From Baekduia alba (GTDB lineage: Bacteria; Actinomycetota; Thermoleophilia; Solirubrobacterales; Solirubrobacteraceae): a stretch of 64,000 nt of DNA. Numbering within the stretch: position 1 is the first letter of the stretch; the number at the start of each line of letters is the position of its first letter. The translations under genes were made by a program, and so were the position numbers. Where the stretch lies: the NCBI RefSeq assembly GCF_028416635.1, contig NZ_CP114013.1:1054001-1118000 (forward strand). Direction: 5' to 3'. The notes below the pieces were generated by a model. It was given only the letters and a program-made list of their open reading frames with translations. It had not been told where the DNA came from and ran no database searches. This document shows, piece after piece, positions 18,549 through 35,160 of this stretch.

Positions 18549-18626
18549 GTGAGCGCGGACGGCGTCGGTCGTCTGGTGGTGTGCCCGACACTGGGCGTCG
18601 GCGTCGGCGCCGAGGTCGCGTCGTGA
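18549..18626 (+). CDS. Mini-ORF 1 of the rsmI 5' array
   Basis: Twenty-five codons from GTG 18549, one base after the ROK stop codon. Its middle (GRLVVCPT) repeats the RsmI N-terminus, then diverges to LGVGVGAEVAS. Its TGA (18624-18626) overlaps the GTG of the next mini-ORF as GTGA. It could be the original rsmI start before duplication. Translation is unproven. Confidence 0.3.
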   Translation: MSADGVGRLVVCPTLGVGVGAEVAS

Positions 18627-18682
18627 CGGGGCGTTTGGTGGTGTGCCCGACACTGGGCGTCGGCGCCGAGGTCGCGTCGTGA
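18623..18682 (+). CDS. Mini-ORF 2 of the rsmI 5' array
   Basis: Nineteen codons (MTGRLVVCPTLGVGAEVAS). The first ten residues equal those of RsmI. The TGA at 18680-18682 overlaps the next GTG (18679-18681) as GTGA, the geometry used for translational coupling elsewhere in this window. Confidence 0.3.
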   Translation: MTGRLVVCPTLGVGAEVAS

Positions 18683-18738
18683 CGGGGCGTCTGGTGGTGT
18701 GCCCGACGCTGGGCGTCGGCGCCGAGGTCGCGTCGTGA
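18679..18738 (+). CDS. Mini-ORF 3 of the rsmI 5' array
   Basis: The same 19-residue peptide as mini-ORF 2, with two synonymous changes. Its TGA (18736-18738) overlaps the GTG start of rsmI at 18735, so ribosomes finishing it would be placed on the rsmI start. Confidence 0.3.
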   Translation: MTGRLVVCPTLGVGAEVAS

Positions 18739-19544
18739 CGGGGCGTTTGGTGGTGTGCCCGACGCCGATCGGCAACCTGGAGGACATCACGCTGCGGGTG
18801 CTCAGCGCGCTGCGCGAGGCCGACGTGATCGCCTGCGAGGACACGCGCCACACGCGGATCTTGTTGGACAAGTACGGCGTGAGCGCGCGGACCGTGAGCT
18901 ACCACGAGCACAACGAGGCCTCGCGGGCGTCGGAGCTGGTGGCGCGGATCCGGGACGGCGAGACCGTGGCGCTGGTGAGCGACGCCGGCATGCCGTTGGT
19001 CAACGACCCCGGCTTCGTGCTGGTGCAGGCCTGCGTGGCCGCCGGGATCGGCGTCGAGGTGCTGCCAGGGCCGTCGGCGGCGCTGACGGCCCTGGTCGCG
19101 TCGGGGCTGCCGGCGACGACGTGGCGGTTCGTCGGGTTCCTGCCGCGCAAGCAGGGCGAGTTGTCGTCCTTGCTCGGCTCGGCGGCGGAGACCCTGGTCG
19201 CCTTCGAATCCCCGCGTCGCCTGTCCGCGTCGTTGGAGATCCTCACCGCGCTCGATCCCGGTCGCCCGGTCGCGGTCTGCCGCGAGCTGACCAAGCTCCA
19301 CGAGGAGATCCTGCGCGGCACCGCCTCCGAGTTGTCCTCGCACTTCTCCTCGACCGAGCCCCGCGGCGAGATCGTCGTCGTCATCGGCGCCGCGCCGGCC
19401 GAAGACCTCGAGCTCGGCCCCGCGCTGTCGGCGCTGACGAAGCTGGTCGAGGCGGGAGCGAAGACACGCCCGGCGGCGGCCGTCGTGTCCGAGCTGACGG
19501 GCGTACCGGCCAACACGCTGTACAAGGCGCTGACGGACCGCTGA
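18735..19544 (+). CDS. rsmI: 16S rRNA (cytidine1402-2'-O)-methyltransferase
   Basis: A 269-residue tetrapyrrole-methylase-fold enzyme that 2'-O-methylates C1402 of 16S rRNA with SAM. Characteristic segments are VCPTPIGNLEDITLR (8-22), ADVIACEDTRHTRILLDKYG, LVSDAGMPLVNDPG (SAM loop), LPGPSAALTAL, FVGFLPRK and CRELTKLHEE. Length is normal. The start GTG 18735 places MTGRLVVCPTPIGN as the N-terminus, which matches the family. An open frame continues upstream, but that is repeat DNA. Translation is probably coupled to the mini-ORFs before it, since no Shine-Dalgarno is present. Confidence 0.95.
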   Translation: MTGRLVVCPTPIGNLEDITLRVLSALREADVIACEDTRHTRILLDKYGVSARTVSYHEHNEASRASELVARIRDGETVALVSDAGMPLVNDPGFVLVQACVAAGIGVEVLPGPSAALTALVASGLPATTWRFVGFLPRKQGELSSLLGSAAETLVAFESPRRLSASLEILTALDPGRPVAVCRELTKLHEEILRGTASELSSHFSSTEPRGEIVVVIGAAPAEDLELGPALSALTKLVEAGAKTRPAAAVVSELTGVPANTLYKALTDR

Positions 19545-33577: not shown

Positions 33578-33631
33578 GAGACCACTCCAGGTGATCATGC
33601 AGACCCCGCTCAAGGCGTCGGCCGGGGCGAT

Positions 33632-33647
33632 TACGATGGACGTCGAC
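33632..33647 (+). promoter_or_regulatory. -10 box of prs
   Basis: TACGAT (33632-33637) lies 10 nt before GTG 33648. The in-frame ATG 33636 overlaps the box itself, so the GTG is the likelier start. Confidence 0.4.
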
Positions 33648-34670
33648 GTGAGCACCCCGACGCGGACGATGCCGGTGGCGACGAGCCTCCCGATCGACTA
33701 CGACAAGCGGCTGATGCTGTTCTCGGGGCGGGCGAACCCCGAGCTGGCCGCGAAGATCGGCAGCAAGCTCGGGGTCGACCTCGGGCCGATCACCCTCAAG
33801 ACCTTCAAGAACGGCGAGGTCTACTGCCGCTACGAGGAGTCGATCCGCGGCGCGGACGTCTTCCTCATCCAGCCGATCTGCGCCAACCCGGCGACCGGGA
33901 TCTCCACCAACGACGCGCTGATGGAGCTGCTGGTGATGATCGACGCCGCGATCGGCGCCAGCGCCCACCGCGTCATCGCCGTCACGCCGTGGTACGGCTA
34001 CAGCCGCCAGGACAAGAAGTCCGCGCCGCGCGAGCCGATCTCCGCGCGCCTCGTCGCCCGGATGCTCGAGTCCGCCGGCGCCGACCGCGTCCTGACGATG
34101 GACCTGCACGCGGGCCAGGTCCAGGGCTTCTTCAACATCCCGGTCGACCACATGACCGCGCTGATGATGCTCACGCAGCACTTCGACGACATGCAGCTCA
34201 ACGACCTCGTCGTCGTGGCGCCGGACGCCGGCCGCGTGAAGCTGAACAAGAAGTTCGCCTCCAAGATCGGCGCCGAGCTGGCGATCCTGGACAAGGAGCG
34301 CCCCGCCCAGCAGGTCGCCGAGATCGGCTACGTGATCGGCGACGTCAAGGGCAAGACCGCGGTGATCGTCGACGACATGATCGACACGGCCGGGACCCTG
34401 AAGGCCGCGGCGCACACGGTCCGCGACGAGGGCGCCGAGCGCGTCTTCGCCGCCGCCACGCACCCGGTCTTCTCCGGCAACGCCTACGAGAACCTCGTCG
34501 ACGCCGGCTTCGAGAAGATCGTCGTCACCGACACGATCCCGCTGCGGCCCGGCGCGCCGGAGAACATCCAGGTGCTGTCCTGCGCCGACCTGCTCACCGA
34601 CTCGATCCGCCGGATCTTCACCGACGACTCGGTGTCCGAGGTCTTCGGCGGAGAGAACCAGCTGTTCTGA
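33648..34670 (+). CDS. prs: Ribose-phosphate pyrophosphokinase
   Basis: A 340-residue enzyme forming PRPP from ribose 5-phosphate and ATP for nucleotide, His and Trp synthesis. It contains FSGRANPELAAKIG, KTFKNGEVYCRYEESIRGAD, PWYGYSRQDKK, the Mg-binding DLHAGQVQGFFNIPVDH and the PRPP loop VIVDDMIDTAGTL (about 242-254). It ends EVFGGENQLF. Length is slightly above the 315-325 norm because of the N-terminal 20 residues. GTG 33648 is chosen; ATG 33636 is also in frame. The last codons and stop are duplicated three times in a tandem array downstream. Confidence 0.96.
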   Translation: MSTPTRTMPVATSLPIDYDKRLMLFSGRANPELAAKIGSKLGVDLGPITLKTFKNGEVYCRYEESIRGADVFLIQPICANPATGISTNDALMELLVMIDAAIGASAHRVIAVTPWYGYSRQDKKSAPREPISARLVARMLESAGADRVLTMDLHAGQVQGFFNIPVDHMTALMMLTQHFDDMQLNDLVVVAPDAGRVKLNKKFASKIGAELAILDKERPAQQVAEIGYVIGDVKGKTAVIVDDMIDTAGTLKAAAHTVRDEGAERVFAAATHPVFSGNAYENLVDAGFEKIVVTDTIPLRPGAPENIQVLSCADLLTDSIRRIFTDDSVSEVFGGENQLF

Positions 34671-34671
34671 C

Positions 34672-34725
34672 ATGTCCACCGTCGCCCGCATCTCCGCTGC
34701 GGGCGGAGAGAACCAGCTGTTCTGA
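34672..34725 (+). CDS. Mini-ORF 1 of the prs 3' array
   Basis: Seventeen codons, MSTVARISAAGGENQLF, with the ATG one base after the prs TGA (TGA-C-ATG). The last seven residues copy the Prs C-terminus. Reinitiation after prs is plausible but unproven. Confidence 0.3.
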   Translation: MSTVARISAAGGENQLF

Positions 34726-34726
34726 C

Positions 34727-34780
34727 ATGTCCACCGTCGCCGGCATCTCCGCTGCGGGCGGAGAGAACCAGCTGTTCTGA
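34727..34780 (+). CDS. Mini-ORF 2 of the prs 3' array
   Basis: Seventeen codons, MSTVAGISAAGGENQLF, one base behind the previous TGA. It differs from the first by Arg to Gly. Confidence 0.3.
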   Translation: MSTVAGISAAGGENQLF

Positions 34781-34781
34781 C

Positions 34782-34835
34782 ATGTCCACCGTCGCCGGCA
34801 TCTCCGCTGCGGGCGGAGAGAGCCAGCTGTTCTAG
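34782..34835 (+). CDS. Mini-ORF 3 of the prs 3' array
   Basis: Seventeen codons, MSTVAGISAAGGESQLF, ending TAG. The following gene's apparent CTG start is 8 nt downstream of this stop. Confidence 0.3.
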   Translation: MSTVAGISAAGGESQLF

Positions 34836-34842
34836 GCACCTC

Positions 34843-35160
34843 CTGACCTCCACCGCCGCAGCGCTGCTGCAGGACCGGCTCGGGCTCTCCGACGACGAGC
34901 TGCTGACCGTGCTCGGCGCGGATCCGTTGACGGTCCTGGGCGGCGATCTCGACGACAAGCCGCAGCTCCCGATCCTCCTCACGCTCACCGAGGAGGCCGC
35001 GGAGCGCGCGGGCGGCGAGACGCTCAAGCGCTGGATCCGCAGCAGCGGGAAGGTCGGCCGTCCGATCGACCTCCTGCTCGCCAGCGACTTCGGCGCGTTC
35101 GAGGACGCCCTCGAAGACCTCCGCGAGCGCGGCTTCGTGGTCCGCGCCCCGGGCCGTTAG
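34843..35160 (+). CDS. Hypothetical protein, apparent CTG start
   Basis: The coding-like frame runs from CTG 34843 (LTSTAAALLQDRLGLSDDEL) for 105 residues; the first standard start, GTG 34909, would remove 22 residues that look like a helical domain start. It contains LSDDELLTVLGADPLTVLGG, LLTLTEEAAERAGGETLKRW and a C-terminal DALEDLRERGFVVRAPGR. No family is recognised; the helices suggest a small DNA- or protein-binding fold. It lies directly behind the prs array and converges with the DUF4235 gene with a 4-bp stop overlap. Confidence 0.5.
   Translation: MTSTAAALLQDRLGLSDDELLTVLGADPLTVLGGDLDDKPQLPILLTLTEEAAERAGGETLKRWIRSSGKVGRPIDLLLASDFGAFEDALEDLRERGFVVRAPGR

What the first reader, a model, noticed from the sequence alone, without database searches (positions are those of the whole stretch)
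34647..34835. Second mini-ORF array: the prs 3' end repeated three more times
Seen: a 55-bp unit repeats the last codons of prs (GGENQLF stop). Each stop is followed after one base by ATG, opening a 17-codon ORF that ends again in GGENQLF. It is unrelated in sequence to the rsmI array, yet has nearly the same period, the same stop/start juxtaposition and again copies a gene end. Two independent arrays of this form within 16 kb are unlikely to be coincidence of codon use alone. Inference: a reinitiation chain, a small-peptide family, or a recombination mechanism that duplicates gene termini; each unit can also form a CTCCGC/GCGGAG hairpin that might stabilise the prs mRNA.
Basis: partly seen in the sequence, partly recalled or inferred. 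Interest (0 to 1): 0.82.

Follow-up and report, generated by a model that had tools for sequence, protein, structure and literature searches.

The report
Tandem mini-gene repeats after prs
An actinobacterium carries a stack of three 55-base insertions behind its prs gene, one of dozens of such stacks in its genome, and wherever these lie in translated DNA their length keeps the reading frame intact, so ribosomes could be passed through them to the next gene, much as proposed for the tandem repeats used to type tuberculosis strains.

Summary
The repeat is real: a 55-bp unit, 3.4 copies, 98% identical, window 34647-34833. prs ends at the first TGA. Three stops are TGAcATG and open 17-codon ORFs; the last copy reads GGESQLF-TAG. 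The host belongs to Solirubrobacteraceae.

It is one member of a genome-wide class. In 1.96 Mb of this genome (33%), 17 of 44 tandem duplications have periods of 51-59 bp, with sequences unrelated to each other. None was found in 0.98 Mb of related loci or 0.4 Mb of two congeners.

The strongest result is a reading-frame rule. Four of four arrays inside genes are multiples of 3. Seven of seven arrays spanning close co-directional gene pairs (prs and rsmI included) close every mini-ORF onto the next start. Arrays in untranslated DNA obey no rule. This points to selection on translation; the peptides themselves vary.

At prs, the ancestral TAG stop (as in a congener) now sits in the last copy, so the units lie inside the old 3' end and rebuild it. 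Similar short prs-tail duplications occur in three relatives, and the prs tail is also an attachment site for integrase-bearing elements in the family.

Closest known: mycobacterial MIRU/VNTR loci. New variant of a known kind. Reinitiation itself is inferred.

The parts
33597..34670 (+). prs, ribose-phosphate pyrophosphokinase; its C-terminus GGENQLF-TGA is supplied by the first unit of the array
   Evidence: best match in each congener 83-96% identical; congener prs genes read end GGENQLF
34647..34833 (+). tandem array, 55-bp unit, 3.4 copies
34672..34725 (+). mini-ORF 1, MSTVARISAAGGENQLF, start 1 nt after prs stop (TGAcATG)
34727..34780 (+). mini-ORF 2, MSTVAGISAAGGENQLF
34782..34835 (+). 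mini-ORF 3, MSTVAGISAAGGESQLF-TAG; its end is the displaced ancestral prs 3' end (TAG as in congener G006)
34843..35160 (+). downstream gene of unknown function, probable CTG start (GTG or CTG at the same position, 7 nt after the prs stop, in G006/G005); no Pfam match
18600..18765 (+). second array of the same class, 56-bp unit, between a ROK-type gene and rsmI, closed by GTGA overlaps

Best explanation
The array is a bacterial minisatellite, one of an estimated ~50 locus-specific tandem arrays of 51-59 bp in this genome. A unit carrying its own copy of the last seven prs codons was inserted or duplicated at the 3' end of prs. It displaced the ancestral TAG stop, which is now in the last copy, and the unit was then amplified, probably by slippage between identical copies. 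Because prs and the next gene are spaced for termination-reinitiation, only a version whose period closes each mini-ORF onto the next start was tolerated. A ribosome finishing prs at TGA can reinitiate 1 nt later, read 17 codons, and repeat this three times until the TAG 7 nt before the downstream start. Prs keeps its C-terminus, and the peptides are by-products. Shown: the sequence anatomy, the genome-wide class with its period peak, the reading-frame rule, array-free junctions in congeners, and similar short duplications at prs in other species. Inferred: that ribosomes reinitiate, that slippage amplifies the unit, and what produces the ~55-bp length.
For: Period spectrum: 17 of 44 duplications at 51-59 bp, 0 at control offsets; units unrelated to one another. 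Frame rule: in-gene arrays 54, 57, 57, 54 are all multiples of 3; coupled-junction arrays rsmI 56 (GTGA), prs 55 (TGAcATG), pstS-like 56 (TGATG), argB-like 53 (ATGA), apt 56 (GTGA), 4738679 53 (TGATG) and 4499013 86 (ATGA) are all closed; arrays in untranslated context 57, 58, 51, 53, 59, 58, 57, 57 follow no rule. Chance is about 1/3 each: 1/3^7 = 4.6e-4, 1/3^11 = 5.6e-6. Array-free junctions in congeners: prs (G006, G005), rsmI (G001, G003), apt, pstS-like and argB-like. TAG stop and 7-nt gap shared with G006. In G004 and G140 the short prs duplications also give closed ORFs ending SAAGGENQLF. A known parallel exists in M. tuberculosis.
Against: Gene calls come from a home-made caller, so contexts can be wrong at single loci. 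Only 33% of the genome was scanned. The frame rule is a post-hoc test on 11 arrays. No translation data exist. For prs the juxtaposition is +1 nt, not the -4/-1 overlap best known for coupling. The unit spacer does not match the native DNA downstream of prs, so a plain local duplication does not explain the first step.
Confidence: 0.6

Rival explanations
1. Attachment-site scar: the prs 3' end is the attB of tyrosine-integrase elements in this family. The tail copies are att cores left by integration and deletion of an element, later amplified in tandem.
For: G013 has an 8.0-kb element between two copies of the prs tail, with a tyrosine integrase (PF00589 E 1e-14) 0.6 kb from prs. G055 (1.36 kb) and G094 (2.15 kb) carry inserts flanked by the tail, and in G038 and G011 a second tail copy lies at or near a contig end. 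Short prs-tail duplications occur in four species of three genera.
Against: Sixteen other 51-59-bp arrays lie at unrelated genes, so prs needs no special cause. There is no integrase by the array: the nearest relative of the G013 integrase in this genome is about 48 kb away. The repeated tail extends into GGCGG, whereas the copies flanking the G055, G094, G011 and G013 elements lack it upstream.
Confidence: 0.2
2. Plain slippage minisatellite under ordinary purifying selection: any ~55-bp duplication is neutral where it does not break a gene, and closed mini-ORFs survive only because nothing downstream is disturbed. There is no relay function.
For: Period peak and unrelated sequences; arrays also in untranslated DNA; copies differ by non-synonymous changes.
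Against: It does not by itself explain 7 of 7 closed frames at coupled junctions. Unit ends resemble alleles of other species rather than the local flanks at argB-like and pstS-like loci.
Confidence: 0.25
3. A family of functional small peptides (17-mers).
For: SAAGGENQLF is shared by window, G004 and G140 mini-ORFs, with synonymous differences (GCG/GCA, GGA/GGC).
Against: Peptides at other loci are unrelated; copies carry R/G, N/S, Q/R, V/A and M/T changes; the shared end is simply the prs tail plus about 9 bp.
Confidence: 0.04
4. Hairpins that stabilise or terminate the prs mRNA.
For: TCTCCGC/GCGGAGA can pair; whole array z -2.1.
Against: Unit 2 z 0.00, unit 1 z -1.8; the single C/G difference between copies changes the fold; no U-run; the rsmI unit does not fold better than shuffles (z -0.3).
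Confidence: 0.05
5. Assembly artefact.
For: Nearly identical copies; reads were not available.
Against: Copies differ by single bases; a separate assembly (G004) has a related duplication at the same site; many independent arrays share one frame rule.
Confidence: 0.03

Closest known systems
Mycobacterial interspersed repetitive units (MIRU; Supply et al. 1997, described in PMC12548453)
   Same: Short repeats at gene starts/stops whose ORF is coupled to the neighbouring gene, so insertion has little effect on expression; tandem copies.
   Different: MIRUs are a dispersed homologous family with -4 spacing. The prs unit has no other homologous locus in this genome and uses +1 spacing. A dispersed ~86-bp family here (4499013, 2539442) fits MIRU better.
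M. tuberculosis VNTR3239/ETR-F between rnc and fpg1 (PMC2734929)
   Same: 55-bp (and 79-bp) units between two genes that lie 1-20 bp apart in most other mycobacteria; array absent in relatives; repeat length affected expression of the downstream gene.
   Different: Units there are composites of 37, 18, 26 and 16-bp repeats. The start/stop relay was not described in the passages read.
Integrative elements with attB in the 3' end of a housekeeping gene
   Same: A copy of the gene end is carried so that the gene is restored; the prs tail is such a site in this family (G013).
   Different: No integrase, no cargo and no arm sites beside the array; a 55-bp period shared with unrelated loci.
Translational coupling by termination-reinitiation at ATGA/TGATG overlaps (PMC6728339, PMC10666635; abstracts only)
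   Same: Same stop/start geometry at most arrays of the coupled group.
   Different: Here it is iterated two to four times through meaningless mini-ORFs.

Membership tests
MIRU | unit of about 40-100 bp, often in tandem | tested here: met
   55 bp x 3.4
MIRU | dispersed homologous copies at many loci | tested here: not met
   only one locus for the prs unit; units of the class unrelated
MIRU | internal ORF coupled to the flanking gene by overlapping or abutting stop/start | tested here: met
   closed ORFs; +1 at prs, -4 or -1 at rsmI, argB-like, apt, pstS-like; geometry only, coupling itself not tested
MIRU | mobility into stop/start junctions | tested here: inconclusive
   junctions are array-free in congeners; no transposition shown
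VNTR / bacterial minisatellite | tandem array of near-identical units of 10-100 bp | tested here: met
VNTR / bacterial minisatellite | copy number differs between strains of the species | not testable with these tools
   only one genome of this species held; congeners have none or other short duplications
att-site scar of an integrative element | direct repeat of the gene's 3' end that restores the gene | tested here: met
   tail copies, last copy carries the ancestral TAG
att-site scar of an integrative element | integrase gene or element remnant beside the repeat | tested here: not met
   nearest integrase relative about 48 kb away; between the copies only 31-bp spacers
Translational reinitiation relay | ribosomes terminate and restart in each unit | not testable with these tools
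   inferred from the reading-frame rule only

The most novel reading that the evidence does not exclude
An undescribed process in this lineage creates 51-59-bp insertions, mostly at gene ends, each carrying a recoded copy of the local gene terminus plus a stop/start pair, i.e. micro-elements that splice themselves into operons without breaking genes or coupling. Their unit ends resemble alleles of other species at some loci, and the same prs-specific unit end occurs in two genera.
Probability: 0.17. Interest if true: 0.85.

Novelty: new variant of a known kind. Interest (0 to 1): 0.56.

Why it matters
Tandem repeats between closely spaced genes are the basis of tuberculosis strain typing, yet why they have their length and position is not well understood. 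A distant actinobacterium shows a similar unit length at dozens of loci with unrelated sequences, together with a reading-frame rule. This suggests that a length-specific mutational process plus selection for unbroken translation makes such loci, and that can be tested without working on a pathogen.

Tried and rejected
CRISPR or spacer arrays: rejected, because the whole unit repeats. A dispersed repeat family for the prs unit: rejected; weak hits L002-L008 are chance matches. Unit as a simple local duplication: weakened, since the spacer does not match native DNA after prs and unit ends at other loci match other species' alleles. Small-peptide family and hairpin: see rivals. Papers naming prs as an attB were looked for and none was found among the ten titles listed. 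A first tally that counted only closed ORFs was replaced by one chosen on gene context, to avoid circularity.

Full report
Observation. The prs tail appears four times. Three TGA stops are each followed by c and ATG, opening ORFs of 17 codons; the fourth copy is GGESQLF with TAG. There is no other copy in the 5.86-Mb single-contig genome. The host is a member of Solirubrobacteraceae: one family genome, G139, coincides in coordinates with Svornostia abyssi J379, and most of the named relatives found are Solirubrobacterales.

The prs locus in relatives. In congeners G006 and G005 prs is followed after 7 nt by the next gene, with no array. G006 ends prs with TAG, as does the last copy here, so the three TGA units lie upstream of the old stop and prs now uses the tail carried by the first unit. 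Short second copies of the tail also occur in G004 (86 bp apart, including a 30-bp internal doubling, so probably 56 at first), G140 (56 bp, another genus) and G024 (33 bp, a third genus). The units of the window species, G004 and G140 share TCTCCGCTGC(G/A)GGCGG(A/C)GAGAACCAGCTGTTCTGA. In G004 and G140 the insert is again a closed ORF whose ATG overlaps the prs stop (TGATG): MLRRAPGISAVLRRVPGISAAGGENQLF and MGSGVCELSAAGGENQLF. G024 is not closed at the tail copy; its ORF ends about 7 nt before a downstream GTG (direct reading).

The prs tail as an integration site. In G013 two copies of the tail are 8.0 kb apart, and a tyrosine integrase (Phage_integrase 1e-14, Arm-DNA-bind_4) lies 0.6 kb after prs. 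G055 and G094 carry shorter inserts flanked by the tail, and in G038 and G011 a second tail copy lies at or near a contig end. The prs 3' end is therefore, by this anatomy, an attachment site in this family. This is a serious rival for the origin of the first duplication, but it does not explain the other arrays.

Genome-wide class. I took 1.96 Mb of the same genome. Tandem Repeats Finder and an independent offset-match detector both show a peak: 17 of 44 duplications have periods 51-59, and control offsets near 3 kb give none. Units do not resemble each other beyond 14 bp. In 0.98 Mb of named related loci there are none in this range (8.5 expected at this density, P about 2e-4), and none in 0.4 Mb of G001 and G003 (3.5 expected, P 0.03). 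Many of the named relatives are draft assemblies, so this contrast is indicative only.

Reading-frame rule. With a simple gene caller I sorted arrays by context. Inside genes: periods 54, 57, 57, 54. Spanning close co-directional junctions: rsmI 56 with GTGA, prs 55 with TGAcATG, a pstS-like gene 56 with TGATG, an argB-like gene 53 with ATGA, apt 56 with GTGA, locus 4738679 53 with TGATG, locus 4499013 86 with ATGA. Each spacing fixes the period modulo 3 that makes the unit an ORF ending exactly at the next start (2 for -4 and -1, 1 for +1), and all seven fit. Arrays in untranslated context (57, 58, 51, 53, 59, 58, 57, 57) follow no rule. With 1/3 per array the junction set alone gives 4.6e-4 and all eleven 5.6e-6. 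The test was conceived after seeing the data, and gene names other than prs and rsmI are my reading of the sequences. Differences between copies include amino-acid changes but no indel, so the frame, not the peptide, is kept.

What the units are made of. At several loci the unit is not a copy of the present flanks. The argB-like tail in the unit (CGAGCTGCGTCATGA) is closer to congener G005 (CGAGCTGCGTCGTGA) than to the native copy next to it (CGGGCGGCGTCGTGA). The pstS-like unit ends ATCGGGAGCTGATG as in G001, while the native end is ATCACGAGCTGATG. The apt unit encodes VSSVDLNNFVRDIP, where the left flank encodes MTVDIGSFV and G006 has MSVDIESFVRDI. Old arrays that expand, contract and exchange ends between strains would explain this; so would insertion of foreign units. 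The tools cannot separate these.

Position. Eight of 18 arrays overlap a stop codon, against 6.7% of random 80-bp windows, but about a third of random windows not wholly inside genes do so as well, so gene-end preference beyond avoidance of gene interiors is mild.

Hairpin. The array folds moderately better than shuffles (z -2.1), unit 1 z -1.8, unit 2 z 0.00, rsmI unit z -0.3. This does not support a structural role.

Known parallels. A 2025 review describes MIRUs as repeats that insert at start codons so that their ORF is coupled to the gene at -4 nt, which likely limits the effect of insertion (PMC12548453). The tuberculosis VNTR3239 between rnc and fpg1 has 55-bp and 79-bp units, is absent from most species outside the tuberculosis complex, where the two genes lie 1-20 bp apart (54 in M. 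leprae), and its length correlated with fpg1 expression (PMC2734929). The window arrays work like these. They are not members of the MIRU family, because the dispersed sequence family is missing. A separate dispersed repeat of about 86 bp in this genome, which at 2539442 reads as a closed ORF between GTGA and ATGA, fits that definition better.

Verdict. The array is real and is one of a class of locus-specific, frame-preserving minisatellites. A translational relay is the most likely reason for its form (about 0.6), with the process that sets the length at about 55 bp unknown.

Noticed in passing
L171 1-8500 (G013:C35:76000 onward): 8.0-kb integrative element in the 3' end of prs with a tyrosine integrase, an excisionase-like HTH and a RepB-primase/CHC2 protein; prs appears as attB in Solirubrobacteraceae, and no report of it was found in the one paper search made.
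   Followed up: partly
own genome 4499013-4499272, 2539442, 4716429, 1729173, 1930550 (L255 and others): Dispersed ~86-bp intergenic repeat family (CTCGCCTGGCGGCTCGG...GCTCGCCAGGGGCTC); the copy at 2539442 reads as a closed ORF from GTGA to ATGA between two genes, a MIRU-like family.
   Followed up: partly
window 34843: Downstream gene of prs seems to use CTG as start (also in G005; GTG in G006 and G004).
   Followed up: no
L133, L137, L139, L145, L149, L153, L161: prs genes 70-81% identical to this Solirubrobacteraceae prs in contigs labelled Planosporangium, Pseudonocardia, Rhodococcus and Amycolatopsis; possible horizontal transfer, contamination or plain conservation.
   Followed up: no
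own genome 4593409-4593732: Longest array of the class: 53-bp unit, 6.1 copies, over the 3' end of a gene, not at a coupled junction.
   Followed up: no
own genome 1617614, 2541604, 2696522, 4738679: Array units at coupled junctions have lower GC (0.55-0.60; prs 0.65) than the genome (0.73) or intergenic DNA (0.69).
   Followed up: partly
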